Assembly (NCBI GenBank): GCA_030431255.1
Contig: JAUIJL010000001.1
Coordinates: 248,001 to 312,000, forward strand
Source of the DNA: Thermoanaerobaculia bacterium
GTDB taxonomy: Bacteria > Acidobacteriota > Thermoanaerobaculia > Multivoradales > J023
DNA length: 64,000 nt
Direction of reading: 5' to 3'
The position numbers and the translations under genes were made by a program. Positions 4,967-58,759 of the stretch are shown piece after piece (the stretch's first letter is position 1; every line of letters begins with the position of its first letter). The notes under the pieces are model-generated. The model was not told the DNA's origin. It searched no databases and was given only the letters and a program-made list of their open reading frames with translations.

Positions 4967-5977
4967 ATGTCAGCTCCATCTCTCATGAACATGACCGGCT
5001 CGGCCATCGGAATTCTTTTCACGATAGTGTTGCTGGCTGCGCTTGTGCAGGGTCCTGCGCAGGCGGCGGGGTCGTCGGACCGTTCCGGCGGCAAGCTGGG
5101 CCAGTGGATGGCGGCGAAAAATCATCCCGAGACGGCCGCGGCTTCGGCGTTGGCGAGCATCGATGCAAAAGCAGTGGATCGTGAGCTCGATGCGCTGATC
5201 ACAGATCCGAGCAAGAAACCCCAACTGAGCTCGGGTTACCGATTGAAGACCCTGCCGTCCGAAGGTTTCGTGATTTACGAAGATCCGTCCGATCATCATC
5301 CGAGCCTGATCTTGAATCAGAAACCCCGCTACGATCTGATCCTTCAGGTGCCCCACAGCGGCCTCGAAACCGGCACCGTTGCGCAGGCGGCGTTCTTAAT
5401 GCGAGAGCTTGGTGCGCGGGCAATTTTGCTTTCCGGGATGCATCGATGCGCGGCGTCGACTTTCTCGGATTGCGACGGCAAGACCTCGGTCTGCGGTCAG
5501 TCGGAGCCTTATCGGACTTCCGACGCCGCCCATTCTGCGGATGGCCTATTCCAGAAGATGCACGAACGATTGACGGACGCCTGGCCCAAGAGCTTGGTGG
5601 TGCAGCTGCATGAGATGCGTCCTTCCGAGAAAGGTCCGTTGGTGATCCTGTCTTCGACCGCCAAAATCCATGGGGACGATGGCCCGGTGAGCGGCTTGAA
5701 AGCGGCCTTGCGCAAGCATCTCAAAGATAAAGCCTCGGTGCTCAGCTGCCATGACGAAGAAGATTTGAAAAAGGGTTTTCGGCTGTTGTGCGGCTTCACC
5801 AACGTTCAGGGCCGGGAAATCCACGGCTCGCCGGATCCGTGCGACGGCAACGCAACCCGCTCCAGCGAGCGATTCCTGCATGTGGAGCAGGACTACGAAA
5901 TCACCTCGGAGCCGTGGTACCTCGATGGTTTTGCCGCGGCCCTCGAGGAGCTGGCGGAGGCGAGCCGGCGTCTCTGA
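4967..5977 (+). CDS. Exported protein resembling a zinc amidohydrolase
   Basis: A 336-residue protein. The frame is open from a GTG at 4883, but the ATG at 4967 is preferred because an AAAGGA lies just upstream and it puts a good signal peptide (hydrophobic residues 13-28, cleavage near AQAA) at the N-terminus. The core contains VPHSGLETGT (H130, E134), a conserved-looking cysteine cluster, VVQLHEM (H215) and HVEQDYE (E308). This H/E...H...E arrangement resembles zinc hydrolases of the N-formylglutamate amidohydrolase, PghP or carboxypeptidase-like groups, but I cannot place it in any one family. If active it would act in the periplasm. Function is inference only. Confidence 0.55.
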   Translation: MSAPSLMNMTGSAIGILFTIVLLAALVQGPAQAAGSSDRSGGKLGQWMAAKNHPETAAASALASIDAKAVDRELDALITDPSKKPQLSSGYRLKTLPSEGFVIYEDPSDHHPSLILNQKPRYDLILQVPHSGLETGTVAQAAFLMRELGARAILLSGMHRCAASTFSDCDGKTSVCGQSEPYRTSDAAHSADGLFQKMHERLTDAWPKSLVVQLHEMRPSEKGPLVILSSTAKIHGDDGPVSGLKAALRKHLKDKASVLSCHDEEDLKKGFRLLCGFTNVQGREIHGSPDPCDGNATRSSERFLHVEQDYEITSEPWYLDGFAAALEELAEASRRL

Positions 5978-45386: not shown

Positions 45387-46322
45387 TCAGTCGAAAATCT
45401 CCTCGAGCGAGTCGGCCTTTTTGAACCGACCGGCCCAGCGTGCGATGTCAGCTGAGCTCGCATTCTGCAAGCGATCCTCGACTCGAGGAGGGAGTGAGCC
45501 GAAAGCACCGATCAACAAGGCTCTTAGGAGATTTGCCTCTCCTTGTTGAATGCCCTGGGTTTTGCCGTCTTCTATGGCTAGTCGTTCGATGCTGGTGACG
45601 TATTGCACATTCTTCTCCGCTTCGATTTCGTGGACGGCGTCTTTGACTCGTTGACTCAGCTCTTCGGGTAGGGTCATGATCCAATCGATGAATCTGAACA
45701 GATTGAGAACGTCGTTTCTACCGAAACCGCGGTTATAGAGGCTTCTGATCAAGCGAATCTTCCAGGTGAGTCGCTCTTCGGGTCGAGCGCGAGTAGCCTG
45801 GGTCTTGAGATGGGCCATGGTCACCAAGGCGAAAGGATTCGCGCTCGCCTCCAGCTCAGCCCACCGGCTATTGTACTCCAGTAGCTTCACAGTCGGAAAT
45901 TCGAGATGCATCTTGCAGTCCCAGAGATCACAGGCCGTGAATCCCTTGGGATGAAAGCTTCGATCCTCATCGCAGAGCAGGGCGACGGATACCACTGGGC
46001 GTCTAAATCGATCGAAAGTCCGATAGTTGTAGATGAAGACCCGCTCGGCAAAGCTTTGATCCCTTTGGGCCTGAATCTCGATATTCACCATCACTTCGAA
46101 CGGCTCGCCGTCTACAGTCCAGATTTGAAAGAGCTTGTCCGCCAAGCGATGAGTGACCTCGGATTTCGGAAAGATCTTGAGAAGCTCTTTGTCCTTGCTG
46201 ATTGGCGGTCGGCTCCAATCCACCCCTCCGTGGATTTTTGGGAAGTAGAGCTCAAAAAAGTCCTTGAGATACAGCTCCAGAACATCCTTCCATGGACTAT
46301 CGTAGTCGTCTCTTTGCGACAT
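45387..46322 (-). CDS. Rpn/YhgA-family nuclease-like protein
   Basis: A 311-residue protein; the ATG at 46322 is taken, with GGAGAGG upstream, though a GTG at 46328 is in frame. The N-terminal half is a PD-(D/E)xK-like region: an Asp in the KDKELLKI area, a core strand MVNIEIQAQRD giving the ExQ signature, and YNYRTFDRF. The C-terminal part has the DUF4351-like ANLLRALLIGAFGSLP helices. Rpn proteins are recombination-promoting nucleases often spread by transfer. It is convergent with the unknown anchored protein and lies at the end of a possible accessory region (38.7-46.3 kb). Confidence 0.85.
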   Translation of the reverse strand: MSQRDDYDSPWKDVLELYLKDFFELYFPKIHGGVDWSRPPISKDKELLKIFPKSEVTHRLADKLFQIWTVDGEPFEVMVNIEIQAQRDQSFAERVFIYNYRTFDRFRRPVVSVALLCDEDRSFHPKGFTACDLWDCKMHLEFPTVKLLEYNSRWAELEASANPFALVTMAHLKTQATRARPEERLTWKIRLIRSLYNRGFGRNDVLNLFRFIDWIMTLPEELSQRVKDAVHEIEAEKNVQYVTSIERLAIEDGKTQGIQQGEANLLRALLIGAFGSLPPRVEDRLQNASSADIARWAGRFKKADSLEEIFD

Positions 46323-46461
46323 CCTCACCTCTCCGTGCCCCCAAAGTGTGGAGGCGCTAATAAGGCGTAAATTTACGCTTCGAGAGGTACATTGTCAATA
46401 AGTTGAGTGCCAGCCGAGGAAGGCGAAGTTGCTTGTGCTTGAGTGGGTCGAACGCGCCTGA

Positions 46462-47976
46462 TCACTCAGCCTTCCGTGACACCAAATAGACTCCACCCCC
46501 AACGACCGTTGCCGCGACGATGCCTAGAGCGGCGGAGATACCCGGGTTCTTGACCGAGACGTCGGCGAAGTAGGAGAAGTATGCCGGACCAGTGATGTAG
46601 AGGCCGTAGTGCACGATCACGGCGGTGATGGCTGCGGCGGTGGCTGCGGCGGCGGGGGTTTTTTCGAGGAAGGTGCCGAAGAGCACGGGGATGAAGGCGG
46701 CGGCGAAGTAGGCGTAGACGCCGAGCTGGGCGAAGATGATGACGCTCAGGTTGGGCTCGATCAGCTGTTGGTAGGCGAGGGCAAGGCTGAGGGCGGCCAG
46801 GGCGACGATGACGCCTCGGTTGAGGCGGAAAAGGAAGAGATCGCTGAGGCTGCGGCCGGTGAATCGGCTGTGGAGATTCTTGATCAGATCGTTGGTGATG
46901 ATCAGGGATAGGCTTTGGATCAGGCCTTCGAGGGTCGACATACCGGCAGAGATCAGGCCGAGGAAGACGATGACGCCCACGTACCAAGGGAATTGAGTGA
47001 CCAGGTAGGTGGAGGTGACGCTATCCGGCGCGATGGTGGCGCCGCCGTGCTCGAGGGTGGGGAAGGCGAGGCGTGCGTAGAGGCCGACGAAGACCACCCA
47101 GAAGAAAAGGGTTTGAATTGCGATGCCGGTGACCAAATAGCGGTTGACGTCGCGCTCTTTTTTCAACAATAAAGATTTTGTGATGATGTGCGGCTGGCAA
47201 ACGATGGCGACACCCACGACGATGGTGCAAAAAACCACTTCGAAGCCGTCGCGGAAGAGGGGGCTTTGGGTGTTGTAGAGAGCCACCAGATTGGGATCGA
47301 TGGCCCGCAGCCGATCGATGAAACCGGCGATTCCGCCCTCGAAAAAGCGAGTGCCGGAGCCCAGCAGGATGATCGCCACCACGGTCATGATCAGGGCTTG
47401 GATGGTGTTGGTGTAGACCATGGAGTTGGCGCCACCGAACATCATGTAGCCGAAGGAGAAGATCACGATGGCGACCAAGACCACGGGCTCTGCGAGACCG
47501 AGGGAGGCGGCGACCACTTTGGTGAGACCCACCAGGATCATGACGATGAAGGTCACCAGCAAAAGCGATAGGACGGCGAAGAAGAGCGCCAGATTGGGGC
47601 TTTGATAGCGCTCTCCCACCCATTGCGAAAGGGTTAGGGCACGTACGGAATCGCCGTATTTGCGAAAGCCCTTGGTGATGACCACCAGGGAGATCGACAT
47701 GGAGATGGGCAGCACCACGCATAGCCCGAAGATGGCGCTCAGGCCGAAATAGGCCACCAAGCCGGGGTTGATGATGAAGGTGGCGGCGCTGGTGGTGGAG
47801 GCGGCGAGGGCGAGCCCCACGGCGACGGGGGAGAAGGCGATGTTGCCGACGGCGTAGTCCTCAACGCTGCGGTTGCGCCGAGCGCCGCGCACCACCAAAA
47901 CCAGGATGGCGGTGGCGTACGCGATCACCAAGAGCCAGCCGGCGAGCACGTTCGGGTCGGATGTAGAAGGGTCCAT
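46462..47976 (-). CDS. Sodium:solute symporter (SSS family)
   Basis: A 504-residue protein with about 13 membrane helices. The SSS-family features include GLALAASTTSAATFIINPG in the second helix region, FGGANSMVYTNTIQALIM, and GLISAGMSTLEGLIQSLS, matching PutP/SglT-type sodium-binding helices. It imports an organic solute with Na+; substrate unknown. It is the last gene of a minus-strand cluster: its start lies 12 bases after the stop of the alpha/beta hydrolase gene. The neighbours suggest a carboxylic acid, such as a fatty or hydroxy acid, as cargo. Confidence 0.9.
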   Translation of the reverse strand: MDPSTSDPNVLAGWLLVIAYATAILVLVVRGARRNRSVEDYAVGNIAFSPVAVGLALAASTTSAATFIINPGLVAYFGLSAIFGLCVVLPISMSISLVVITKGFRKYGDSVRALTLSQWVGERYQSPNLALFFAVLSLLLVTFIVMILVGLTKVVAASLGLAEPVVLVAIVIFSFGYMMFGGANSMVYTNTIQALIMTVVAIILLGSGTRFFEGGIAGFIDRLRAIDPNLVALYNTQSPLFRDGFEVVFCTIVVGVAIVCQPHIITKSLLLKKERDVNRYLVTGIAIQTLFFWVVFVGLYARLAFPTLEHGGATIAPDSVTSTYLVTQFPWYVGVIVFLGLISAGMSTLEGLIQSLSLIITNDLIKNLHSRFTGRSLSDLFLFRLNRGVIVALAALSLALAYQQLIEPNLSVIIFAQLGVYAYFAAAFIPVLFGTFLEKTPAAAATAAAITAVIVHYGLYITGPAYFSYFADVSVKNPGISAALGIVAATVVGGGVYLVSRKAE

Positions 47977-47988
47977 GTCGGCTCCGGA

Positions 47989-48834
47989 TTAGGTGGGCGT
48001 CAGGCGGTCGAGAAAGAGTAGGTAGTCCGCAGCCAGCCAGTGGGGATCCTCCACCACCAGGGCATGGCCCGACGACGGGTGGATGCTCAGCTCGCATGGA
48101 CGGCCGGGCCGGTGCAGGGCGTCGACCATCTCTCGCACGAGGTCGAGGGGCATGATGCGGTCCTCGGTGGCGTGCACCACCCGCGTTGGACATTGCACCT
48201 TGGCGAGGAAGGCCGAGAGATCGAAGTCGAGCAGACTGCCTAGGATCGCCAGCAGACCCTCGAACCACGGGTGGGGCAGAGCGGCGACCTGACGGGCTCG
48301 ATTGGCGATGGTTTCAGCGTGCTCTTGCCGATATTCGGCGGAGTAGAAGTCGTGCAAAAGGGCGTCGTGGAACGGCTGGGTGCTGCCGCCGCCGAGCACT
48401 TGCCGCACGAGGCCCTGCATGCGCTGGGAGTCTCCGGCCATGCCCGGGGGCGTGCGGTGGACCGTGGTGGCGAGGGTTAGAGAGTGGATCCGCTCTGGGA
48501 TCTCGGCGACCAGCGGCATGCTGACCATGCCGCCGTAGGACGTGCCCAGGACGTGCACCCTCGGCAGATCGATGTGATCCATCAGGTGGATCACGGAGGG
48601 CACGTGGTCCTCAATGCGAGTCGGTGCCGGTTGTGGATCCGAGGGCGGGCTGAGCAATTGACCGCGGAAATCGCATCCGAGCACTGCGTAGCCATTGGCC
48701 AGCAACGCGTCGGTGATCGGTGCCCACGACGGATAGGTCATCATGCCGCCGTTGAGCAGCAGGACCACCTCGCCCCGATCCAGGTCGGCGGTCGGCTCCA
48801 ACAATCGGTGGCCCAAGGGAGAAGGTGTGCTCAT
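47989..48834 (-). CDS. Cytosolic alpha/beta hydrolase
   Basis: A 281-residue alpha/beta hydrolase. The nucleophile elbow is GTSYGG (S99), the acidic residue lies in ATEDRIMP (about 219), and the His in SSGHALVVEDP (about 266). The oxyanion region is LNGGMM rather than HG. There is no signal peptide. Its ATG overlaps the stop of the upstream acyl-CoA ligase gene by four bases (48831-48834), indicating translational coupling. It may cleave an ester, thioester or C-C bond in the pathway encoded by this cluster. Confidence 0.87.
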   Translation of the reverse strand: MSTPSPLGHRLLEPTADLDRGEVVLLLNGGMMTYPSWAPITDALLANGYAVLGCDFRGQLLSPPSDPQPAPTRIEDHVPSVIHLMDHIDLPRVHVLGTSYGGMVSMPLVAEIPERIHSLTLATTVHRTPPGMAGDSQRMQGLVRQVLGGGSTQPFHDALLHDFYSAEYRQEHAETIANRARQVAALPHPWFEGLLAILGSLLDFDLSAFLAKVQCPTRVVHATEDRIMPLDLVREMVDALHRPGRPCELSIHPSSGHALVVEDPHWLAADYLLFLDRLTPT

Positions 48835-50393
48835 GCCGGCTCCTGGGAGTCAGTGGATGTGTCGCGCAGGTAGTCCTCGCGCAAATCGCCTTTGACCACT
48901 TTGCCGTAGGCGGTGCGCGGTAGGTGATCGAGGATCCGGTAGGCCTTGGGCCATTTGAATTTGGCGAGGCGCTCGCTCAGGAAGGCTTGTAGGGAATCGT
49001 CGGGTTGCACCATCGGGCCACGCAACACCACGAAGGCGACGCCGATTTCCCCCCATTTCGGATCCGGGATGCCCACCACGGCGGCGTCTTCCACCTCCGG
49101 GTGCTGTACCAGAACCGCTTCGATCTCGGCGGGATAGATATTGACGCCGCCGCTGATGATCATGTCCTTGCTGCGGCCGGCGACGTAATAAAAACCCTCT
49201 TCGTCCCGTCGGGCCTGGTCGCCGGTGTGGAACCAGCCCTCGCCGTCGATGGATTTGGCGGTGGCTTCCGGGTTGTTCCAATACCCCTGGCAGACATGAT
49301 CGCCGCGGAAGAGCAGCTCGCCGATCTCACCGTCGGCCACATCGCGACTATCGGCGTCCACCAAGCGTACCTCCGTGAACGGCATGGGCTTGCCGATGGA
49401 CCCCGCCTTGCGCACGCTGTCGTCCACGGTCATAGCGAAGCAATTGACCCCGACCTCGGTCATGCCGAAGCCTTGTTTGAAGGCGATGCCCCGCGCTTGG
49501 TAAGCGTCGATCAAATATTGGGGCAGGGGCGCTCCGCCACTGATCAGCCACCGAATGCTGCTCAGATCGACGGTCTCGAAGGCCGGCGATTCGGCCAGCA
49601 TTTTCCAGATGGTGGGCACCCCGAGGGTGACGGTCACGCCCTCGTTTTCGATCGTCCGCCAGACGTCCTCGGCGTTGAATTCCGCGTGCAAAACCACCGT
49701 GCCGCCGATGGTGAAAATGGGAGTCAGGAACGCAGCCAGGCCGCCGGCGTGGTAGAGGGGCGTGAAAATCGAGGTGACGTCGTCGCTTCGCAGCTGCCAG
49801 CCACAAACCGTATTGAAGGCGTTGGCCACCACCATGCGATGGGGAATCTGGACGCCCTTGGGCCGGCCGGTGGTGCCCGAGGTGTAGAGCATGCAGTAGA
49901 CGTCCTCGCCGTCGCAGGGGGTGCGTTGCCAATCGTTTTTTTCGGGAAGGCGGCGGATCTCCTCAGCGTAGGAGCGGGCTTTGACGTCGGAAGCGTCGGA
50001 CGCATCGAGGGCGATCCAATGGTCGAGCTCCAAGCGCTCTCGCAGCTGGGCGACGACCTCGGCGCCGTGGTGATCGTAGATCAAACCGCTCAAACCCGCG
50101 TCGGTGATCACGTGCTCCAGCTCCGGCGCCGTGAGACGGGTGCCGAGGGTCACCAGGATGAGACCGGTCTTGCCGGCGGCAAAGAAGGCTTCGAGAAATT
50201 CCACCCGGTTGTGGGACAGGATGCCGATGCGATCACCCTTTTGCAGACCGAGGACCTCGGTCCACAAGCGAGCGCAGGCCTCGGCCCGGGCATCGAGCTC
50301 GGCGTAGGTCAGCCGCAGCTCGGGCTCGACGACGACCAGGGCCGGGTCGTCGGGGGTCAGGCGGGCGCGATCGCCCAGAAGGTCAGCTTGCAT
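48831..50393 (-). CDS. AMP-forming acyl-CoA ligase
   Basis: A 520-residue ANL-superfamily enzyme. Motifs: P-loop YTSGTTGRPKG, substrate region FKQGFGMTEVG, HTGD, hinge GRSKDMIISGGVNIYPAEIE, and the C-terminal catalytic lysine in YGKVVKG. It activates a carboxylate with ATP, then CoA. Its sequence fits medium- or long-chain or cyclic acid ligases, not OleC beta-lactone synthetase, which lacks this hinge. ATG 50393 follows GGGAGG. It overlaps the upstream KAS-like gene by 11 bases and the downstream hydrolase by four, so these three are tightly coupled. Confidence 0.92.
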   Translation of the reverse strand: MQADLLGDRARLTPDDPALVVVEPELRLTYAELDARAEACARLWTEVLGLQKGDRIGILSHNRVEFLEAFFAAGKTGLILVTLGTRLTAPELEHVITDAGLSGLIYDHHGAEVVAQLRERLELDHWIALDASDASDVKARSYAEEIRRLPEKNDWQRTPCDGEDVYCMLYTSGTTGRPKGVQIPHRMVVANAFNTVCGWQLRSDDVTSIFTPLYHAGGLAAFLTPIFTIGGTVVLHAEFNAEDVWRTIENEGVTVTLGVPTIWKMLAESPAFETVDLSSIRWLISGGAPLPQYLIDAYQARGIAFKQGFGMTEVGVNCFAMTVDDSVRKAGSIGKPMPFTEVRLVDADSRDVADGEIGELLFRGDHVCQGYWNNPEATAKSIDGEGWFHTGDQARRDEEGFYYVAGRSKDMIISGGVNIYPAEIEAVLVQHPEVEDAAVVGIPDPKWGEIGVAFVVLRGPMVQPDDSLQAFLSERLAKFKWPKAYRILDHLPRTAYGKVVKGDLREDYLRDTSTDSQEPA

Positions 50394-51432
50394 GGTCGAT
50401 TCCTCCCGCGCCTTGACCGACCACCGGCCCCCAGCGGACCGTGGAGGCGGACCAGGCGTAACCGATGCCCGCCGCCACCATCACCATCAAGGTACCGTCC
50501 CGCAGGCGACCGGAGTCGAGGCCGAGCTTGACGCTGATCGCTTGGTCCTGTTGGCCGATGTGGCCGAAGTCCGAGAGGTAACAGCTTTGTTCCTCGGTCA
50601 AACCCAGCTCCGAGAGGATGTAGCGGTGAGCGGAGGGTTTCATGTGCAGGATGTTGAGATAGCCGATGTCGGAGCGATCACAAACGCTTCTGGCCAGGGA
50701 TTGATCGACTACTTTCAAAAAATTGGCCATGGAGACGGCATCCAGCCGCTCTTTCATGCCCTGGGGATCGGGGCAATCGAAGCGATCTCGCTTGGCGGCC
50801 CTTGCCTCCGGGCTCAGGGCCTCCTTGGTGCCGCCGGCGGGAATGATCACGTCGAAAGAAAAGTCGCCGTCGACGATGACCGACGATTCCAAGAGCTCGT
50901 TGCGACCCAGGTTCTTGCGCAGCAGGATGGCGCCGCCGCCCGCCGCCAGACCGAAGAGGAAGCGGGTGCGCGAATTGGAGTAGTCCAGGTGGTCGCCGTT
51001 GCGATAGCCACCAGCGATCAACACCGTGTTCAGGTCGGGATCGCTCAGCATCATGGATTTGGCCATTTTCAGGGTAGCCATGGTCGTGGCGCAGCGCATT
51101 TGCACGTCGATCGCCCAGGCGCGATGGGCTCCCAGGTCGTGGGCGAGCTTGATGCCCGCGGTCCACAGGGGGTGCTCCTTCCACTCCTCGGTGGTGCACA
51201 GCACGAGGTCGATCTCGTCGGCCGGGATCGACGCCCGGCGCAGGGCGTCCTCCGCCGCCCACACCGCCATGGCGTTGGTGTGGTCGTCCGGTCCCGGCAC
51301 CGGTTTGCGCGCGATGCCGAGCTTTTCCACCACCACCTGTTCGGGAATGCCGGTCAGCTCCGCGAGCTCGGCGGCGGTTTTGAAAGGTTCGGGGATGTAG
51401 GTCCCCACGGAGGCGATGCCGATATGGGTCAT
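50383..51432 (-). CDS. KAS III-like condensing enzyme with Cys-His-His site
   Basis: A 349-residue thiolase-superfamily protein of the FabH/KAS III type. The nucleophile is C114 in VQMRCATT. The usual active-site His is H263 (ILHMKPS). The third residue, Asn in canonical FabH, is replaced by H291 (FGHIGQQDQ). The rest of the fold (GGYRNG, GLAAGGGAILL, GIGYAWSA) is well kept. A Cys-His pair without Asn also occurs in PqsC-like enzymes, which condense without malonyl decarboxylation, so the reaction may not be standard fatty acid initiation. The frame to 51906 upstream is an artefact; ATG 51432 gives the family start. Confidence 0.85.
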   Translation of the reverse strand: MTHIGIASVGTYIPEPFKTAAELAELTGIPEQVVVEKLGIARKPVPGPDDHTNAMAVWAAEDALRRASIPADEIDLVLCTTEEWKEHPLWTAGIKLAHDLGAHRAWAIDVQMRCATTMATLKMAKSMMLSDPDLNTVLIAGGYRNGDHLDYSNSRTRFLFGLAAGGGAILLRKNLGRNELLESSVIVDGDFSFDVIIPAGGTKEALSPEARAAKRDRFDCPDPQGMKERLDAVSMANFLKVVDQSLARSVCDRSDIGYLNILHMKPSAHRYILSELGLTEEQSCYLSDFGHIGQQDQAISVKLGLDSGRLRDGTLMVMVAAGIGYAWSASTVRWGPVVGQGAGGIDHAS

Positions 51433-51442
51433 AGTGATTCCG

Positions 51443-52480
51443 TCATCCGCAAACAGCTGAGTATCCCGAGCAACAGCCGGTGCCGGTGCACGAGGTGGTG
51501 AGCATGTTGATTTGGATGGCGCCAGTATTGCTCTTGGCTCGGTAGTGGCCGACGCCGTCGGCGTCGCCGCCGAGCAGGTTGAAGATCGTCCAATCCGCGA
51601 GGTCGTAGTCGAGGCCGAGGGCGGTGGTGCCGTGGCCGACGTCGAGCTGGGAGCGGACGTTGGATCGACTGTCGAAGCGAGCGGAATTGCCACAGCCGCT
51701 GACCGACGACGCGGTGCCGCACAGCACCTCATCGTGGATGTCGGCGCCGATGGTGTAGAACCAGGTGCTCTTGCCGGACGGATCGTCGCGGAAGCCGCCG
51801 TTGCCCATGCGCGGATTCCAGGTGGACCAGCTGTGGGGGTAAAGGCCGAAGATGTCGGAGTTGTAGATGTTTTGGGAGCCGCAAGTGGGGTAGAGGGCGT
51901 TGGCATAACCCACCCACCAACAGGAGACCAGGCCGCGCATGCCGCCGGCGATGCCGATGAAGCGGCGGGTGCTGCTCCACAGGCTGTTTTCGTCGATGGC
52001 GTAGAGGGCCATGGTGACGCCGAGGGAGTGGGCCACCACGTCGACTTGGGAAGCGCTCGTGTAGGCCTTAACGTCCCAGATGAAGTCGGCGATTTGGTCG
52101 GCTTTCGACGGCTTGTGGTAGTTGTATTGCGGCAAGGATCGCTCGCTGGACGACAACCAATTCAAGCCGAAAAGCTCGCAGTCGTTATAGCCGGCGTTGC
52201 GAAACGCGTCGTAAACCGACGGCACGCCCGTGGACGATGGGGCATCATAATTCTTGGCTTCATCGCCGTTGCCGTGTAGGAAGATCACCGGGGTCTTTGA
52301 GGCCGTGCAGCTGCCACCGCCGAATCCGCCCCAAGGCGCATTAGACGGTGAGAATCCACCCGCGAATTGGTTCGCTCCGCCGTTGACGTCGAGGGCCGAG
52401 GCCGGGGCGCCGAGGCAAAGCAGGGAAGCGAGGACGGCGAGGATCCAAGGGGCTGATCTGCGGGTTGACGTGCGGCTCAT
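51443..52480 (-). CDS. Exported lipase / PHB depolymerase-like alpha/beta hydrolase
   Basis: A 345-residue protein; ATG 52480 follows AGGAG. The signal peptide ends at ASA (residue 29). The hydrolase has an oxyanion HGNGDE (69-74) and nucleophile elbow VAHSLG (S152). The GGANQFAGGF and NWLSSSERS phrases resemble lipase-class enzymes of the PhaZ7 extracellular polyhydroxybutyrate depolymerase type. Cysteines CTGTGCC near the C-terminus suggest a disulfide-bound tail. It would release acids or oligomers outside the cell, which the TonB receptor and symporter in the same cluster could import. Lipase versus depolymerase cannot be settled from sequence. Confidence 0.78.
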   Translation of the reverse strand: MSRTSTRRSAPWILAVLASLLCLGAPASALDVNGGANQFAGGFSPSNAPWGGFGGGSCTASKTPVIFLHGNGDEAKNYDAPSSTGVPSVYDAFRNAGYNDCELFGLNWLSSSERSLPQYNYHKPSKADQIADFIWDVKAYTSASQVDVVAHSLGVTMALYAIDENSLWSSTRRFIGIAGGMRGLVSCWWVGYANALYPTCGSQNIYNSDIFGLYPHSWSTWNPRMGNGGFRDDPSGKSTWFYTIGADIHDEVLCGTASSVSGCGNSARFDSRSNVRSQLDVGHGTTALGLDYDLADWTIFNLLGGDADGVGHYRAKSNTGAIQINMLTTSCTGTGCCSGYSAVCG

Positions 52481-52506
52481 CGCAATCTCCTTTAGGGCTC
52501 TGGGGT

Positions 52507-53541
52507 TCAGGGACTGGTTTCAAGGGCTGGGTCCGGGGAGAGGAGAGGTTTCAACGCCTCGAGCAGTGCTTGGGGGCACTCCGCTTGGGGCAAATGACCG
52601 CATTTCTTAATCACATGAAGCTCGGCATCGGGTAGGCCGGCCACCAAGCGGTCCGGGTAGTCGCGGCCCATAAAGCGGTCCGACTCGCCCCACACCACGT
52701 GCACCTTGGGCTTGATCTCGGACAGCCGTCCGTCGAGCAGGTGGCCTTCCAGGTCGTCGTTCTCCGCGAACATGCGGCTGATGGGGCCCTTGGGGCCGCG
52801 TCGAACCAGATCGTCGAGCACCATGTCGGGGGTGGCGGGTGACGACGGATCCCGCAAGGCCGACATCAAGAGCCGGGCTTGCTCGCGATCCTCGGGCAAT
52901 AGGTCGAGGGGCTCTTCGGAGCCGTCGAGGGTTTGGGGCTCGGCGCGCACCGGCCCGCCGTTGATCCACCACTCGGCTTCGACCCAATCGGGATGTCGAT
53001 GGGCGATCAGCGCCGCCAGCCAAGCTCCCATGGAGTTGCCGGCCAGGGTCACTTTAGTCTCAGCCCGTCGGGGGTCAGTAGTCTCGGCCCGTTGGGGGTC
53101 AGTGCCGGCCCGCTGACGTTCGAGCCAGGTCTCCAGGCCTTGGAATACCGTCGACATCTTCAAGGGTCCGTCCGCAGGTCCGCTCTCGCCGTGACCCGGT
53201 AGATCCACCAACAACACCCGCCGACTTTCCGCCAGGGCGGGTGCTACCTGGAACCAAGTGCCGGCTTGGTCCGCCACGCCGTGGATCATCACCAGGGTGG
53301 GATGCTCGGTCGAGCCCTTGGACCACCACACGAGCGATTGGTCGTGGATTTGCTCCTCATGGCGCTCGAAACCCGAGGCCGCCAGCTGGGTGCGGGTGAA
53401 AGCAATGAAGAAGTCCATGGGGCCGGGGCTTTGGACCTGCGGTTCTGTGGCCTCTGGTTCGGCGGCCGGCTCGGGCTCTTGGGCCAGAATCGGTGGGATC
53501 GAGAGCAGGGTGACGAGAAGAACCGCTGCAATGTGGTCCAT
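52507..53541 (-). CDS. Exported or membrane-associated alpha/beta hydrolase
   Basis: A 344-residue protein started at ATG 53541, where a signal peptide MDHIAAVLLVTLLSIPPILA begins; the longer frame to 53850 only reads through the upstream repeats. Features are HGVADQAG, DLPGHGES, nucleophile elbow AGNSMGA (S170) and the terminal GHLPQ histidine. Residues 147-162 carry an eight-residue duplication, TDPQRAET/TDPRRAET, encoded by a 24-bp tandem repeat close to the nucleophile elbow. No clear ribosome site precedes the start: that DNA is GC-rich repeat. The enzyme probably works in the periplasm on an ester. Confidence 0.8.
   Translation of the reverse strand: MDHIAAVLLVTLLSIPPILAQEPEPAAEPEATEPQVQSPGPMDFFIAFTRTQLAASGFERHEEQIHDQSLVWWSKGSTEHPTLVMIHGVADQAGTWFQVAPALAESRRVLLVDLPGHGESGPADGPLKMSTVFQGLETWLERQRAGTDPQRAETTDPRRAETKVTLAGNSMGAWLAALIAHRHPDWVEAEWWINGGPVRAEPQTLDGSEEPLDLLPEDREQARLLMSALRDPSSPATPDMVLDDLVRRGPKGPISRMFAENDDLEGHLLDGRLSEIKPKVHVVWGESDRFMGRDYPDRLVAGLPDAELHVIKKCGHLPQAECPQALLEALKPLLSPDPALETSP
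53057..53104 (-). repeat. 24-bp tandem repeat inside the alpha/beta hydrolase gene
   Basis: Two 24-base units at 53057-53080 and 53081-53104 differ at three positions (one starts GTCTCAGCCC, the other GTCTCGGCCC), with a degenerate third partial unit following. The frame is kept, adding eight residues to a surface loop before the nucleophile strand. Confidence 0.8.
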
Positions 53542-53542
53542 C

Positions 53543-53823
53543 ACCCTCACCCCCCCATCCCCCCTCTCCCGGGGCGGGAGAGGGGGGAGTGCTTGCTTGC
53601 GCTCCGCGCGCGCGTTTGAAAGTGCTTCTTCAGCCTTTGGGCGTAGAGCAGCTTTCTCTGATACGTCACCACTCACGCCGGCTCTCTGGCTCCCCCTCTC
53701 CCGTCTGCGGGAGAGGGGGTTGGGGGGTGAGGGCTCTGAAATATGAGTAGGGCTAGGGAGAGCGGTCGCGCGCTCCGGTCCCCTCTCCCCCCCGGGGAGA
53801 GGGCTAGGGTGATCGTCCTTCAA
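53543..53823. repeat. Cluster of GC-rich palindromic repeats within the operon
   Basis: Three palindromes with CCCTCTCCC/GGGAGAGGG arms fill the gap between the second KAS gene and the alpha/beta hydrolase: 53559-53587 (12-bp arms, loop GGGGC), 53692-53719 (12-bp arms, loop TCTG) and 53781-53803 (10-bp arms, loop CCC). The outer ends CCCTCACCCC and GGGGTGAGGG also pair across 53543-53733. Such repeats are widely dispersed in G+C-rich bacterial genomes and can form strong RNA hairpins. Here they split an otherwise tight operon. Confidence 0.85.
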
Positions 53824-53840
53824 GCTTGAATCCATAGGAA

Positions 53841-54854
53841 TCATCTCCATCTAAAAGCCACACCGGCTTGGTTGTAACCCACCCCCGAGCCCACCAAGAC
53901 CACCAAATCACCGGGCTCGGTTTTGCCCTGCTCGACGGCGTCGTCCAAGGCCATGGCCAGGCAGGCGGAGCCCGTATAACCCCACTGCTCCATGATCGTG
54001 TGGGTGCGCTCCAAGGGCAGACCGAGCTCCGACATCACCAGCTCGATGGAGGGTTTTCGGACTTGGGTGAACAGTGCCAGGTTGATGTCCGGGACCTCGA
54101 AATCACCGTTTTGGGCCAGCTCGCGCACCAGACGGGGCCAGCCCTCGTTGTTGATTTCCGGCGGATAGCGCTCGATCAGTCGAACTTGGGTACGACCGGC
54201 GTCCACGGCCTCGTGGCTGGCGGGCTCGGCGGTGCCGCCGGCGAAAATTCCCCAGCGCTCTGCGTAGGAGCCGTCGGCGTGGGTGGCGGCGGCGACGAAA
54301 CCCGGCTCGTCCGACGGCTCGAGCACCGCCGCGCCGGCACCGTCGCCGTAGAAGAAGACCGTTGGATCCGACGGGTCCGCGTGGCGATGCATGAGGTAGG
54401 CGCCGACCACCAGGACGGTTTGGATCTTCGGATTGACCGCGATCCAGCCCGCGGCGGTGGCCAGGCCCGTGGGAAAGGAGGCGCAGGCACAGCCGATGTC
54501 GAAGGTGCCGGCGTTTGTTGCGCCGAGCTTGTGCTGCAAGACCGTGGAGGTGGCCGGGGTGGGGAAGTCGGGGGTGTCGGTGCAGAGGATCACGAGATCC
54601 ACGTCTTTGGGCTCGCGACCCGCGCGCTCCAAAGCTTGCTGAGCCGCGGGCAGGGCGAGATCCGAGGTCGCCCAATCGTCGGGCGCGAGCCAACGGCGAC
54701 GGATGCCGGTGCCCTCTTCCATATCGTCGACGAAGGTCTCGAGGCCCTGGATGTGCGCGAATCGCCGTCGAAGGTCGTGGTTGCTCAGCTCGATTTGGGG
54801 CACATAACGTCCCGTGGCGACGATTCGCGCAGATCTTTGGGGGAGGGGGAGCAT
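53841..54854 (-). CDS. KAS III-like condensing enzyme lacking the His and Asn positions
   Basis: A 337-residue thiolase-superfamily protein. The nucleophile is kept as C124 (IGCACASF). The stretch aligned with the FabH His motif reads LFTQVRKPS (T263), and that aligned with the Asn motif reads WGYTGSAC (Y293), so neither residue is in place. The fold is otherwise complete (FFYGDGAGAAVL, VLVGSGVGYN). Paralogues of this WGYTGSAC type exist but their reactions are not known to me. It could form a heterodimer with the other KAS-like protein at 50383-51432, as in PqsBC. The ATG at 54854 lies 20 bases after the SDR gene. Confidence 0.83.
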   Translation of the reverse strand: MLPLPQRSARIVATGRYVPQIELSNHDLRRRFAHIQGLETFVDDMEEGTGIRRRWLAPDDWATSDLALPAAQQALERAGREPKDVDLVILCTDTPDFPTPATSTVLQHKLGATNAGTFDIGCACASFPTGLATAAGWIAVNPKIQTVLVVGAYLMHRHADPSDPTVFFYGDGAGAAVLEPSDEPGFVAAATHADGSYAERWGIFAGGTAEPASHEAVDAGRTQVRLIERYPPEINNEGWPRLVRELAQNGDFEVPDINLALFTQVRKPSIELVMSELGLPLERTHTIMEQWGYTGSACLAMALDDAVEQGKTEPGDLVVLVGSGVGYNQAGVAFRWR

Positions 54855-54874
54855 TTTTGGCTCGGGTCCCAAGC

Positions 54875-55654
54875 TCAAGTCCCGAGCACCAAGCCGCCGT
54901 CCACGGAGAGCACTGCGCCGTTGACGAACGACGCGGCGTCCGAGGCCAGCCAGAGATACGCCTCGGCGATCTCCTCGGGTTTGCCCAGGCGGTCCACAGG
55001 AGTACGAGCCACCATGCCGGTCACCACCTTCTCGGGCATGCTCCGGACCATCTCCGTGCCGATGAAACCGGGGGCCACGGCGTTGGAACGAATGCCGTAG
55101 CGCCCCAGCTCCCGGGCCCAGCCGCGGGTCATGTTGATCACCCCGGCTTTGGTGGCGGCGTAGTTGGTTTGGCCGAAATTGCCGTAGAGACCGACCACCG
55201 ACGAGGCGCTTAGGATCACCCCTCGCTCGGCGCGGATCATGTGCGGCACCACGGCCCGGGTGCACAGGAAAACGCCTTTCAAGTTGACGTTCAGCACGGC
55301 GTCGAAGTCCTCATCGCTCATGGTGGAGACCACCTCGCCGCCCCGCCACTTCACCAGCTGGGCGTCGCGGGTGATGCCGGCGTTGTTGACCAACACGTCG
55401 ACTCCGCCCCAGCGGTCGACGATTTCCGCCACCGCGTTTTCGACCGCCTCTCGGTCCGTGACGTTGACCGACTGGCATCGGGCTGTCCCGCCGGCAGCTT
55501 CGAGCTCGGCTTGCAGCTCGTCGGCTTCTAGGCGCACGTCCCATGCGGCGACTCTCGCACCTTCCGCGGCGAAGCGTTTGGCGGTGGCTCGTCCAATGCC
55601 GGCGTTCGCGCCGGTGACGATGACCACGCGGTCGTTCAATCCTGTTTCGATCAC
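54875..55654 (-). CDS. FabG-like short-chain dehydrogenase
   Basis: A 259-residue classical SDR with a GTG start at 55654 behind AAGGAGAG. Motifs: TGANAGIG (14-21), NNAGITRD (90-97), catalytic S and YAATK (about 167), and PGFIGTEM. It is closest to 3-oxoacyl-ACP/CoA reductases, and so reduces a beta-keto acyl intermediate with NADPH, or works in the oxidative direction. Its place between the TonB receptor and the KAS-like gene in one operon suggests that it handles the condensation product. Confidence 0.9.
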   Translation of the reverse strand: MIETGLNDRVVIVTGANAGIGRATAKRFAAEGARVAAWDVRLEADELQAELEAAGGTARCQSVNVTDREAVENAVAEIVDRWGGVDVLVNNAGITRDAQLVKWRGGEVVSTMSDEDFDAVLNVNLKGVFLCTRAVVPHMIRAERGVILSASSVVGLYGNFGQTNYAATKAGVINMTRGWARELGRYGIRSNAVAPGFIGTEMVRSMPEKVVTGMVARTPVDRLGKPEEIAEAYLWLASDAASFVNGAVLSVDGGLVLGT

Positions 55655-55730
55655 GTCAAAGCTCTCCTTATCCGATCGTCAAAAACCGCCCCGTCGGCCA
55701 CGCCACAGGATGCGGCCGACGGGACCGAGA

Positions 55731-58019
55731 TCAGAATTTATACCCGAGGGTCGCCGTCACCGTGCGCGGATCGCCGAAGGAGCCTTGCACGATGCCGAGC
55801 ACGGGGATGTTGTAGCCGTTGGTGAGGTATTCCTCATCGGTGAGGTTCTTGCCGTTGACGGTAACCTGCCAATGGCCGTTGCCGGAGAGCCAGGAGACCC
55901 AGGCGTTGACCGTGTCGAAGGAGGGTTGGACCAGGGGCAGCAAGGGACGGGTGGGATCCCGCGGATCGGGTCCGCCTTCGGTGGTCAGCACGGAGTCGTC
56001 GCGGTAGGCATAACCGATGCTGCTGGTGATCAGGCCGCCGAACGCCGGGAAGTCGAAGTTGAGGTTGATCGCGCCGGTGATCTCGGGGGCATTGCTGATC
56101 ACCTGGGTGTCGACGAAACCGTCGTTGTTGGCGTCGAGGAATTCGTCGGGATCGGCGTCGAGCCAGCTCAGGTTGCCGGACAGGCCGAACCAGTAGACGG
56201 TGGGCGAGGTCCAATCGAATTCCACCTCGAGGCCTTGCATGGTGGCGTTGCCGGCGTTCAAGAAGTTGCCGAAGAACGCGTCGTCGGAGCCGTCACCGTC
56301 GGAGTCGAAGGAGGTGAAGGTGCTGACTTGGATGTCTTCGTAGTCGCCGTAGAAGGCCGCTAGGTTGAGCACCAAGCTGCGATCCGCGAGGATCGACTTC
56401 AAACCCACCTCGGCGACGGTCAAGACCTCGTCGTCGAAAGGCTCGGCGGACTCGGGGAAAGCCGTGGCCTGGGCGCGCACGTTGAAACCGCCGCTTTTGA
56501 AACCCCGGGAGAGGGTCACATAACCCATGACGTCGTCGGAGAAGGCGTAGTCCAGACCGACCTTGGGCGCCACGGAGGTGAAGGTCTCGCTCTTGTCGTA
56601 GTCGGCGGTGACCGCGGTCACGGTGCTGAAGGTGTCGTCGGAGTAGCCGGCGTTGAAAGCGATGCCGCGCTTTTCTTCCTCGGTCAAGCGTAGGCCGAAG
56701 TTGAAGGTCAGGCGATCGTTGATGGCGTAGCTGCCGTCGCCGAAGAGGGCGATGGACTCGGTGTCGGTGGTGCCTTCGGTGGTGCCGAAGATGCTGTTGA
56801 GGAAGATGTTCTGCACCAGGCCGCCGGCGGTGCCATCGAAGTAGTAGAAGCCGAAGACGCCGCTGAAGTCGCCGCCGGCGTCGTAGATGAATTGGAATTC
56901 CTGGGAGGTCTGCTCATCGAAGTAGGTGGCGATGACGTCGGTGATGCGCGCCGGGGTGGTGTCGAAGTCGATGTTGTTCTCGGTGTCCGACTCCCGGTAG
57001 GCGGTGATCGATTTGAAACGCCAATCGTCGTTGATCCGCCAATCGATGGTCATGGAATAACCCTCGGACTCGGTGCTGTTCAAGGGCGCCAAGCCGCTTT
57101 GGGTATCGAAGATGTTGGGCAAGGGATCACAGGCTTGGCCGAGGAAGAGCAAGCAGAAGGGGTTGGCTTCCAGGCGGGTCAGACCCTTGGGCTCGGCGTC
57201 GTCCTCGGTGTGGTCGAGGCGCAGCTTGATGGTGACGTCGTCGGACGGCAGCCAGTCGAGACCGAGGCGGTACGCCACGGTGTCTTTGTTGGAGACCTCC
57301 CGGCCGGTGAAGAGGTTGGTGCCGTAACCGTCCCGTTGCAGGGAGGCGACGGCCGCCTTGGCCCGCAGCTTGCCGGGAATCAGGGCACCGCTGACCGAGG
57401 CCTTGAAGTCGGTGGTGCCGTAATCACCGCCGGTCAAGCTGATGGTGCCGGTGGTCTCGTCGGTCATGGCGCGGCTGGTGTATTTGATCGCGCCGCCGAT
57501 GGTGTTCTTGCCGTAGAGGGTGCCCTGGGGTCCGCGCAAGACCTCGATTTGTTGGATGTCGAAGACGTCCAGCAAAGCGCCTTGGGGGCGGGCCATGTAG
57601 ACGTCGTCCAAATACAGACCGACGCCCGGGTCGACGCCCCAAAGAGGATCCGCTTGGCCGATGCCGCGCATGAACGCGGTGAGGGTGGTGCTTTGGTTGC
57701 GGCCGGGATAAATCGACAAGTTGGGGACCTGGGCTTGCAGCTCCGAGAGGTCTACCACGCCGCTGTCCTCAAGGGTCTCGGCGGTGACCACCGTCACCGC
57801 CACCGGCACTTCTTGGATGTTCTCTTCCCGTTTGCGGGCGGTGACCACGATCTCGTCGTCCACCTCGCCGCTGGGCTCTTCGGCGGCAGCGGTCTGCTCG
57901 TCTTGGAGGTTTTCATTCTCGGCCCGGGTTTCTTCCGGGCTCAGGCCCTCGGCGGGGGTCAAGGTCGGGAGCAGAGCGAGACATGCTCCAAGGCCGACGA
58001 GGATTAGCTTGCGCATCAT
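55731..58019 (-). CDS. TonB-dependent outer membrane receptor
   Basis: A 762-residue protein from ATG 58019 (GGAGG five bases upstream). Signal peptide ends near TPAEG. A TonB-box-like segment EIVVTARKREEN begins the mature region, followed by the plug (IQEVPVAVTVV, LRGPQGTLYGKN) and a 22-strand-type barrel ending in TATLGYKF with the terminal Phe. The subgroup resembles receptors from Sphingomonads and Gammaproteobacteria that import hydrophobic or aromatic substrates rather than siderophores. It heads the minus-strand cluster after the TetR gene and supplies outer membrane uptake. Confidence 0.93.
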   Translation of the reverse strand: MMRKLILVGLGACLALLPTLTPAEGLSPEETRAENENLQDEQTAAAEEPSGEVDDEIVVTARKREENIQEVPVAVTVVTAETLEDSGVVDLSELQAQVPNLSIYPGRNQSTTLTAFMRGIGQADPLWGVDPGVGLYLDDVYMARPQGALLDVFDIQQIEVLRGPQGTLYGKNTIGGAIKYTSRAMTDETTGTISLTGGDYGTTDFKASVSGALIPGKLRAKAAVASLQRDGYGTNLFTGREVSNKDTVAYRLGLDWLPSDDVTIKLRLDHTEDDAEPKGLTRLEANPFCLLFLGQACDPLPNIFDTQSGLAPLNSTESEGYSMTIDWRINDDWRFKSITAYRESDTENNIDFDTTPARITDVIATYFDEQTSQEFQFIYDAGGDFSGVFGFYYFDGTAGGLVQNIFLNSIFGTTEGTTDTESIALFGDGSYAINDRLTFNFGLRLTEEEKRGIAFNAGYSDDTFSTVTAVTADYDKSETFTSVAPKVGLDYAFSDDVMGYVTLSRGFKSGGFNVRAQATAFPESAEPFDDEVLTVAEVGLKSILADRSLVLNLAAFYGDYEDIQVSTFTSFDSDGDGSDDAFFGNFLNAGNATMQGLEVEFDWTSPTVYWFGLSGNLSWLDADPDEFLDANNDGFVDTQVISNAPEITGAINLNFDFPAFGGLITSSIGYAYRDDSVLTTEGGPDPRDPTRPLLPLVQPSFDTVNAWVSWLSGNGHWQVTVNGKNLTDEEYLTNGYNIPVLGIVQGSFGDPRTVTATLGYKF

Positions 58020-58051
58020 GATTGCCTCCAAAGCGTTGAGCCGGCCGGCGG

Positions 58052-58759
58052 CTAGGTGCCGTCGGCCTGGGTCTGGGGTGAAAGTCCGAGGTCCGATTTG
58101 AGGTCGGTAGGTTGTGTGCCCTGCGGGCTCGAGCCATGTCTAGGCAGCAGCCCGTAGCGCAGAAGACGGATGAATTCCGTGGTGGCTTGGCGGGAGTCCA
58201 TGCCGAAATGCATGGGAGCTCCGAAGCACTTTTCTACGGTGAAGTAATAGAAAAACCAACGGGTGGCGAAGATCACGCCCACCAAAGGATCCACCTCGTC
58301 CCCGAGCTCGCCGGCCGCTTGACGCTCCGCCAGCTTGGCGCCGTAGAGATCCTGGAATCGCGATGCCATGCCTTCGTAAAAAGCACGGATGTGCTCGCCA
58401 CGAAACTCCACCACGTCGACGTAGATCAGCAGGATGTAGGCGGAATTCTCTTCCACCGCCTTTTCGATCTCGTCGACCATCTCCTCGAGATCCTCGGGGA
58501 AACCGGCGCGGGCGAAGTGTCGCTGCAGGGGATGGTCGGGATCCAAGAGCCGATCCCAATACTCCTGCAACAGCCGCTTGAACATCGCTTCCTTGTTGGG
58601 GAAGTGGTGGTAGAGATTGCCCATCGACAACCCGGACCGATCCGCGATCTGTCGCATGGTCGTCGCCCCGAACCCATGGCTCGAAAACAGCTCGAGAGCC
58701 GCGTTCAAAGCCTGGCGGTTAGAAGCTTTCGATCGTTCCTGTTGGCGTCTGGGTGCCAT
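58052..58759 (-). CDS. TetR-family transcriptional regulator
   Basis: A 235-residue regulator; ATG 58759 follows GGAGAAGAG. The helix-turn-helix lies at about 13-59 (TTMRQIADRSGLSMGNLYHHFPNKEAM). The ligand domain is long for the family and contains AYILLIYVDVVEFRG. It is encoded just upstream of the TonB receptor with a 32-base gap and so is transcribed with the cluster; it probably controls it in response to an acyl or lipid ligand. Palindromic sites 180-220 bases upstream are candidate operators. Confidence 0.9.
   Translation of the reverse strand: MAPRRQQERSKASNRQALNAALELFSSHGFGATTMRQIADRSGLSMGNLYHHFPNKEAMFKRLLQEYWDRLLDPDHPLQRHFARAGFPEDLEEMVDEIEKAVEENSAYILLIYVDVVEFRGEHIRAFYEGMASRFQDLYGAKLAERQAAGELGDEVDPLVGVIFATRWFFYYFTVEKCFGAPMHFGMDSRQATTEFIRLLRYGLLPRHGSSPQGTQPTDLKSDLGLSPQTQADGT

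What the first reader, a model, noticed from the sequence alone, without database searches (positions are those of the whole stretch)
46462..58759. Ten-gene operon linking uptake, hydrolases and two altered KAS enzymes
All genes run on the minus strand, most with overlaps or gaps under 80 bases, starting with a TetR regulator and TonB receptor and ending with a sodium symporter. In the middle are an exported lipase/PHB depolymerase-like enzyme, an acyl-CoA ligase, an SDR and two KAS III-like proteins. The gene types superficially resemble OleABCD, but the ligase has normal acyl-CoA ligase motifs and the SDR is FabG-like. It may be a new route for assimilating or building an acyl-derived compound.
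Basis: partly seen in the sequence, partly recalled or inferred. Interest (0 to 1): 0.65.

Follow-up and report, generated by a model that had tools for sequence, protein, structure and literature searches.

The report
Bioplastic-eating operon with altered KAS enzymes
A bacterium carries an operon that most likely breaks down and eats the storage bioplastic PHB, and its two 'fatty-acid-building' enzymes have lost the usual catalytic residues and may instead help take the building blocks apart.

Summary
In detail: ten co-directional minus-strand genes, nine junctions of -11 to 299 bp. The 'lipase/PHB depolymerase-like' protein is a close PhaZ7 homologue (E 8e-93) with its catalytic triad. Gene order is conserved in relatives; the three PhaZ7 genes found in 59 genomes (this one included), and a remnant in a fourth, all lie within 1.4 kb of KAS-A. 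KAS-B relatives occur in eight bacterial phylum-level groups and haloarchaea; of 35 loci over 15 kb, 35 have a CoA ligase or transferase on the same strand and 33 an alpha/beta hydrolase. In Chloroflexota an unrelated extracellular PHA depolymerase and PHA synthases sit in or near such clusters. Both KAS proteins keep the acylating Cys but have lost FabH's His and Asn, in fixed ways. Best reading: a PHB / 3-hydroxybutyrate assimilation operon (well supported) whose KAS proteins probably act on the acetoacetyl-CoA step (inferred, untested). Against: most KAS-B clusters carry no PHA gene and canonical thiolases are common. OleABCD is not the model. New variant of a known kind; the KAS chemistry is the open part.

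The parts
58052..58759 (-). TetR-family regulator, first gene of the operon
   Evidence: Pfam TetR_N 65.6 bits; orthologues at the same end of the gene set in G003, G011, G018, G034, G046, G054
55731..58016 (-). TonB-dependent outer-membrane receptor (ligand inferred: PHB oligomers or a related product)
   Evidence: Plug and beta-barrel domains; 68-81% identical in six same-order relatives; replaced by another receptor family in G011
54875..55654 (-). FabG-like SDR; proposed (R)-3-hydroxybutyrate or 3-hydroxybutyryl-CoA dehydrogenase
   Evidence: FabG subfamily NF009466 245 bits (cut-off 222); FabG equivalog TIGR01830 285 bits (cut-off 297.75); acetoacetyl-CoA reductase TIGR01829 221 bits (cut-off 302)
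53841..54854 (-). KAS-A: KAS III-fold protein with Cys124, Thr263, Tyr293 in place of Cys-His-Asn
   Evidence: Pfam ACP_syn_III and ACP_syn_III_C; residues; own clade; within 1.4 kb of PhaZ7
53544..53815 (.). GC-rich palindromic repeats in the 299-bp KAS-A to hydrolase gap; function unknown, possibly an RNA hairpin that tunes expression
   Evidence: inverted and direct repeats; the three CCCTCTCCC matches of the window's + strand lie here
52507..53541 (-). alpha/beta hydrolase with a signal-peptide-like N-terminus (by eye), GNSMG nucleophile motif; proposed oligomer hydrolase
   Evidence: Abhydrolase_6 67 bits; motif; conserved at this place in relatives
51443..52480 (-). PhaZ7-like extracellular native-PHB depolymerase; triad Ser152-Asp250-His312
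   Evidence: PDB PhaZ7 E 7.8e-93; NCBIfam NF050060 400 bits, cut-off 450; triad residues invariant in the three-row alignment A6
50383..51432 (-). KAS-B: KAS III-fold protein with Cys114, Leu262, Lys265, His291 in place of the FabH motifs
   Evidence: NCBIfam NF005308 455 bits, cut-off 315; residues; model pLDDT 92, VIA Z 39.0 to BioZ
48831..50393 (-). acyl-CoA ligase (ANL family)
   Evidence: AMP-binding 307 bits and AMP-binding_C 76 bits; PDB acyl/feruloyl-CoA synthetase E 7e-104
47989..48834 (-). cytosolic-looking alpha/beta hydrolase, GTSYG motif
   Evidence: Abhydrolase_1 70 bits; motif
46462..47976 (-). sodium:solute symporter; proposed 3-hydroxybutyrate / short-chain acid uptake
   Evidence: SSF 108.5 bits; 73-79% identical in six relatives

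Best explanation
The operon lets the cell live on poly-3-hydroxybutyrate (PHB) released by other organisms. PhaZ7 is secreted and cuts amorphous PHB. The TonB receptor brings oligomers into the periplasm. The exported and cytosolic alpha/beta hydrolases finish the cutting. The SSF symporter brings in the hydroxy acid, the ligase makes the CoA thioester and the SDR oxidises the (R)-3-hydroxyl group, giving acetoacetyl-CoA. KAS-A and KAS-B, thiolase-superfamily proteins that keep the acyl-accepting Cys but have lost the residues used in decarboxylative condensation, then act on that CoA thioester, most likely by thiolase-like cleavage to acetyl-CoA. TetR is the local switch. Shown: gene content, order conservation, PhaZ7 homology with its triad, conserved KAS substitutions, co-occurrence with PHA genes. 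Inferred: substrates, transport roles, order of ligase and SDR, one transcript. Least sure: the KAS reaction (about 0.4 given the rest).
For: PhaZ7 homologue E 8e-93 with triad. In 59 genomes of the order (this one included) PhaZ7 occurs in 3, plus a remnant in G003, each within 1.4 kb of KAS-A and with SDR and ligase in the same gene string. A second, unrelated extracellular scl-PHA depolymerase (NF050058, 324 bits, cut-off 150) lies in a KAS-B/KAS-A/ligase/hydrolase/ABC gene string in a Chloroflexota genome. PHA synthases: in L035 a class I synthase (645 bits, cut-off 623) and a class III-like one (362 bits, just under 365) stand upstream of KAS-B and the SDR; in L101 two class I synthases (635 and 653 bits) lie divergently, 10-12 kb from KAS-B. 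Of 35 KAS-B loci over 15 kb, 35 have a ligase or CoA transferase on the same strand, 33 a hydrolase, 23 a Liv-type ABC or SSF transporter, 15 a close SDR. An isocitrate lyase gene (728 bits, cut-off 562) lies about 0.3 kb upstream of KAS-B in L020, as expected if the product is acetyl-CoA. Each step of the published route from PHA to oxoacyl-CoA (PMC7830162, passages) has a candidate here; in the operon only the KAS proteins are left for a thiolase-like step.
Against: No activity has been measured. Canonical thiolases are plentiful: 32 of 33 KAS-B genomes searched, 7 matches in this one, so no thiolase gap has to be filled. KAS-B and KAS-A each occur without the other: no KAS-B orthologue in G003, G011 or G018; KAS-A at 40% identity or more in only 6 of 32 KAS-B genomes. 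Most KAS-B genomes carry no PHA gene at all: PhaC_N in 7 of 70 and near KAS-B in 2; Esterase_PHB in 9 of 70 and near in 1. PhaZ7 scores below the NCBIfam cut-off (400 against 450). Four related operons (G015, G034, G046, G054) have no PhaZ7. Some KAS-B loci carry a 4-hydroxybutyryl-CoA dehydratase homologue and Etf genes, so other short-chain acids may be substrates. KAS-B has no Cys in its C-terminal glycine loop, where thiolases carry the base (alignment; equivalence recalled). 12 of 71 loci, all 12.5 kb or shorter, show neither ligase nor CoA transferase on the same strand.
Confidence: 0.6

Rival explanations
1. Same PHB operon, but the KAS proteins are acyl-transfer enzymes without C-C chemistry: the Cys takes a 3-hydroxyacyl or acyl group and hands it to CoA or a hydroxyl, as in acyltransferase members of the KAS III fold (recalled: CerJ, ChlB3).
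For: Both keep the Cys and have lost FabH's His and Asn. Canonical thiolases exist elsewhere in the genomes. CerJ and ChlB3 are among the sequence matches of KAS-B, weakly (E 3e-6 and 2e-9).
Against: No obvious acceptor molecule; PHA synthase, SDR and isocitrate lyase neighbours suit a C4/C2 step.
Confidence: 0.3
2. The substrate is another ester or polyester (other lipids, cutin-like polymers, lactones) and PhaZ7 here has drifted from PHB.
For: P0006 also matches Lipase_2, PhaZ7 is grouped with lipases in print (PMC7830162 passages), and it scores below the curated cut-off. Most KAS-B genomes lack PHA genes.
Against: Full-length PhaZ7 homology (E 8e-93); an unrelated PHA depolymerase and PHA synthases turn up with KAS-B in another phylum.
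Confidence: 0.15
3. A biosynthetic OleABCD-like or pqs-like pathway that joins acyl chains, with transporters for a precursor or product.
For: Gene types overlap: ligase, hydrolase, SDR, KAS III-like pair. PqsD, PqsBC and OleA are among the structural neighbours of KAS-B.
Against: KAS residues for decarboxylative condensation are absent; a PHA depolymerase is in the operon and in L100, and import systems are common in the clusters.
Confidence: 0.07
4. The operon mobilises the cell's own PHA store.
For: PHA synthases lie near KAS-B in two Chloroflexota loci.
Against: No PhaC_N hit in 63 of the 70 KAS-B genomes searched, this one among them; the depolymerases have signal-peptide-like N-termini (by eye).
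Confidence: 0.05

Closest known systems
PhaZ7 of Paucimonas lemoignei (extracellular native-PHB depolymerase; PDB 2vtv, 4bvl)
   Same: Full-length homology (E 8e-93), triad, signal-peptide-like N-terminus
   Different: Sits in a ten-gene operon with KAS-like enzymes and uptake systems; 400 bits against the curated cut-off of 450. The gene context of PhaZ7 in P. lemoignei was not looked at.
Classical PHB assimilation: depolymerase, 3HB dehydrogenase (Bdh), AacS or ScoAB (PMC7830162, passages), then thiolase (recalled)
   Same: Same logical steps
   Different: General ANL ligase instead of AacS/Sco, FabG-like SDR, KAS III-fold proteins in the operon, TonB/SSF uptake genes
NCBIfam NF005308 / PRK06840 '3-oxoacyl-ACP synthase'
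   Same: KAS-B is a member (455 bits, cut-off 315)
   Different: The family name implies condensation on ACP; catalytic residues and gene context argue against it
FabH (KAS III)
   Same: Fold and Cys; KAS-A and KAS-B models match FabH structures
   Different: His244 and Asn274 replaced in every KAS-A and KAS-B row checked
OleABCD
   Same: Gene types
   Different: FabG-like SDR, PHA depolymerase, uptake genes, no Cys-His-Asn

Membership tests
PhaZ7 / e_nPHAscl (NF050060) | curated score cut-off 450 bits | tested here: not met
   400 bits; the two relatives 407 and 399
PhaZ7 / e_nPHAscl (NF050060) | full-length homology to the solved enzyme and Ser-Asp-His triad | tested here: met
   (Ser152, Asp250, His312; which PhaZ7 residues are catalytic is recalled)
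PhaZ7 / e_nPHAscl (NF050060) | hydrolysis of amorphous PHB | not testable with these tools
   -
FabH / KAS III condensing enzyme | KAS III fold and Pfam domains | tested here: met
FabH / KAS III condensing enzyme | Cys-His-Asn triad | tested here: not met
   KAS-A Cys-Thr/Ser-Tyr in 19 of 19 rows (16 distinct) plus 2 more; KAS-B Cys-Leu/Ile/Val/Thr-His in 80 of 80 rows (77 distinct)
NF005308 (PRK06840) | curated score cut-off 315 bits | tested here: met
   455 bits for KAS-B; KAS-A is not a member (166 bits)
Thiolase (acetyl-CoA C-acyltransferase) | thiolase Pfam domains | tested here: not met
   no Thiolase_N/C match for either KAS at E 0.001
Thiolase (acetyl-CoA C-acyltransferase) | NEAF, GHP and CxG fingerprints (listed in PMC3406046, passages) | tested here: inconclusive
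   KAS-B has an invariant His in a GHxG-like motif at FabH N274 (equivalence with GHP recalled), but an aliphatic residue at FabH H244 and no Cys in the C-terminal glycine loop
OleABCD | OleA with its condensing residues plus OleB, OleC, OleD | tested here: inconclusive
   no Ole-specific model was run; the KAS triad is absent and the SDR is FabG-like
PHB assimilation pathway | extracellular depolymerase and candidate 3HB-to-acetyl-CoA enzymes genetically linked | tested here: met
   as candidates by homology only
PHB assimilation pathway | growth on PHB or 3HB needs the operon | not testable with these tools
   -

The most novel reading that the evidence does not exclude
Two separate KAS III lineages have lost the Cys-His-Asn triad, each in its own fixed way (Cys-Thr-Tyr and Cys-Leu-His), and became degradative CoA enzymes of short-chain hydroxy-acid and PHA catabolism: KAS III-fold proteins that cleave acetoacetyl-CoA or a related C4-CoA. 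KAS-B is spread over many bacterial phyla and haloarchaea and filed in databases as a fatty-acid-building enzyme.
Probability: 0.35. Interest if true: 0.78.

Novelty: new variant of a known kind. Interest (0 to 1): 0.6.

Why it matters
It would give a widely spread protein family, now annotated only as '3-oxoacyl-ACP synthase', a testable catabolic role. It would show KAS III-fold enzymes working in breakdown rather than synthesis. It also points to a compact genetic module for eating PHB in little-studied Acidobacteriota, useful for reading bioplastic degradation out of metagenomes.

Tried and rejected
OleABCD membership: set aside, since the KAS triad is absent and the SDR is FabG-like. An obligate KAS-A/KAS-B heterodimer like PqsBC: considered and dropped, because each occurs without the other. 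'KAS-B fills a missing thiolase': dropped, since 32 of 33 genomes have a canonical thiolase (the exception is G310). The idea that PhaZ7 belongs to all such operons: dropped; G015, G034, G046 and G054 have both KAS genes but no PhaZ7.

Literature: searches (KAS III with thiolysis; with PHB, depolymerase and ligase; PRK06840) returned 0 papers. Searches returned lists (84, 1, 30, 14 and 16 papers; 10, 1, 12, 10 and 10 shown); no title or abstract start shown describes this gene set, and none of those papers was opened. Two searches led to the three papers of which I saw passages only. Only open-licence PubMed Central is held, so absence is weak.

Structure: the second look lists only KAS III relatives; thiolases are not in its rows, which shows nothing. 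KAS-A was modelled from 10 rows and is less sure (pLDDT 82).

Method limits: my ORF caller picked some antisense ORFs (cluster c3) and missed KAS-B in several loci; neighbour counts in this report come from tblastn with score cut-offs that I set. Rows dropped: L014, L015, L016 as second copies of L030, L069, L068; KAS matches covering under 85% of the query; for the tree, two of every three KAS-B rows. L058 and L075 were left out because their genomes are those of L020 and L042. Chance estimates: PhaC within 13 kb of KAS-B in at least 2 of 7 PhaC genomes 7e-4, but one of them (L035) prompted the search and without it 0.035; Esterase_PHB 0.049; the two further PhaZ7 genes within 3 kb of KAS-A 6e-7. 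They treat genes as placed at random, and the distances were chosen after looking.
Full report
What is there. The window is bases 248001-312000 of contig 15 of a 10.2-Mb genome. Three same-order genomes hold contigs of the same length and content as named Acidobacteriota records (L014/L030 Thermoanaerobaculia, L016/L068, L015/L069), so the host is inferred to be an acidobacterium. Ten minus-strand genes run from a TetR regulator (58759) to an SSF symporter (46462) with junctions of 35, 76, 20, 299, 26, 10, -11, -4 and 12 bp. Gene types were checked with Pfam and NCBIfam. A sigma-70-like site lies at 59007-58979 upstream of TetR, but such sites are hardly commoner here (3) than in shuffles (mean 2.2).

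The depolymerase. P0006 matches the solved PhaZ7 of Paucimonas lemoignei over residues 32-341 (E 7.8e-93). The catalytic Ser, Asp and His are conserved, here and in two relatives. It scores 400 bits in the curated PhaZ7 family, below the cut-off of 450. PhaZ7 acts on native, amorphous PHB (PMC11893044, passages).

Conservation in relatives. In same-order genomes the order TetR, TonB, SDR, KAS-A, exported hydrolase..., ligase, hydrolase, symporter recurs with variations, at about 35 to 84% identity. A search for PhaZ7 in 59 genomes (the own one included) found three genes: this one, G011 and G018. Both others lie in the same kind of gene set. G018 has TetR-TonB-SDR-KAS-A-hydrolase-PhaZ7-ligase up to the contig end. 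G011 has a compact set: TetR, a TonB-type receptor of another family, SDR, ligase, hydrolase, KAS-A, PhaZ7. G003 keeps a PhaZ7 piece (residues 20-101) between hydrolase and ligase. None of these three has a KAS-B orthologue. G015, G034, G046 and G054 have both KAS genes but no PhaZ7. Of the genomes examined the window's is the only one with both KAS genes and PhaZ7; G005 is cut by a contig end. KAS-B orthologues (50% identity or more) occur in 6 of the 59, one of them a fragment, so the module is patchy. In the tree the window's KAS-B stands apart from that of G054 (L069), which groups with Acidimicrobiia. In G034, G046 and G054 KAS-B comes with a ligase only about 36-43% identical to the window's. 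So KAS-B seems to have been recruited more than once.

KAS-B across phyla. A scan of GTDB contigs gave 71 loci; by record title they lie in Chloroflexota, Myxococcota, Acidobacteriota, KSB1, Ignavibacteriota, Actinomycetota (mostly Acidimicrobiia), Deinococcota (mostly Trueperaceae) and Gemmatimonadetes. More distant members (36-39% identity) are on ten haloarchaeal plasmids; in the four that I opened they sit directly behind a Liv-type ABC transporter operon. By tblastn on the same strand, 59 of 71 loci have a ligase or CoA transferase, 49 a hydrolase, 26 a Liv or SSF transporter, 28 an SDR, 13 KAS-A. Among the 35 loci over 15 kb the counts are 35, 33, 23, 15 and 7. In some the ligase is joined or replaced by a CoA transferase whose best family is butyryl-CoA:acetate CoA-transferase, far below its cut-off (271 against 675 bits). 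In Acidobacteriota at large KAS-B is found in 10 of 247 genomes, 9 over the family cut-off.

PHA link outside the window. In the Chloroflexota locus L100 a type-1 scl-PHA depolymerase (324 bits, cut-off 150; signal-peptide-like start) lies in one gene string with KAS-B, KAS-A, ligases, enoyl-CoA hydratase-type genes and an ABC transporter. In L035 a class I PHA synthase (645 bits, cut-off 623), a weakly PhaR-like gene (36 bits, cut-off 148) and a class III-like synthase (362, cut-off 365) stand before KAS-B and the SDR. In L101, a second KAS-B locus of the L100 genome, two class I synthases (over cut-off) and a class III-like one are divergent from KAS-B. Over 70 KAS-B genomes, PhaC_N is in 7 (8 genes) and near KAS-B in 2; Esterase_PHB is in 9 and near in 1. 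So the link is striking where present, but most KAS-B clusters carry no PHA gene. Loci L045 and L050 carry a 4-hydroxybutyryl-CoA dehydratase homologue (86% identical to each other; L045 against 1u8v E 8e-89) next to Etf genes, which suggests wider C4 acid use. L020 has isocitrate lyase just upstream of KAS-B.

The altered active sites. Against E. coli FabH, KAS-A has Cys, Thr (one Ser) and Tyr at the Cys112, His244 and Asn274 positions in 19 of 19 rows (16 distinct), and so do the two further genes of G011 and G018. KAS-B has Cys, an aliphatic residue (Thr in 4) and His in 80 of 80 rows (77 distinct), with Lys at FabH Asn247 in 80 of 80. Five of five other KAS III proteins of relatives keep Cys-His-Asn. 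In a tree of 50 rows (26 KAS-B, 18 KAS-A, 6 FabH-type) each kind is one group with full support; the root is a midpoint, so whether the triad was lost once or twice is not settled. AlphaFold models (pLDDT 92 and 82) match FabH, BioZ and PqsD structures. The His of KAS-B stands where thiolases carry the GHP His (equivalence recalled; fingerprints in PMC3406046, passages), but counterparts of the NEAF Asn and the CxG Cys are absent.

Interpretation. The published route is depolymerase, 3HB dehydrogenase, CoA activation to an oxoacyl-CoA (PMC7830162, passages), then thiolysis (general knowledge). The operon supplies a candidate for each step; G011 shows a minimal version. The thiolase place is empty except for the KAS proteins. 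That makes thiolase-like cleavage the most economical role, but canonical thiolases elsewhere (32 of 33 genomes) mean that it is not forced by elimination, and acyl transfer is a fair rival. I give 0.6 to the PHB/3HB operon reading with KAS on its CoA step, and about 0.4 within it to C-C cleavage. What was searched in print, and how far, is under Tried and rejected.

Noticed in passing
53544-53815: GC-rich palindromic repeats fill the only long gap of the operon; their CCCTCTCCC core occurs nowhere else in the window except one reverse-strand match at 56507.
   Followed up: partly
L013 (G003:C134), 5000-5242: PhaZ7 reduced to residues 20-101 directly before the ligase; KAS-B absent. A deletion or an assembly fault.
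   Followed up: no
L045:11890-14374 and L050:11936-14400: KAS-B locus with Etf genes and a 4-hydroxybutyryl-CoA dehydratase homologue (L045: E 8e-89): perhaps a 4-hydroxybutyrate branch of the same module.
   Followed up: partly
L020:8374-9669: Isocitrate lyase gene about 0.3 kb upstream of KAS-B.
   Followed up: no
L039:8261-9970 and others: Thiolase-like PRK06064-type gene paired with a zf-ChsH2/OB_ChsH2_C gene inside KAS clusters (at the set scores in 6 and 7 of 71 loci).
   Followed up: no
L062:16767-17777: A second KAS-B, only 36% identical to the window's, with its own ligase in a KSB1 cluster.
   Followed up: no
window 45387-46328: Minus-strand ORF of 313 aa just downstream of the operon without a Pfam match at 1e-5; looks like a PD-(D/E)XK nuclease/transposase-family protein by eye.
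   Followed up: no
window 59260-62594: O-antigen ligase-type membrane protein and a type I phosphodiesterase-family protein, divergent from the operon.
   Followed up: no
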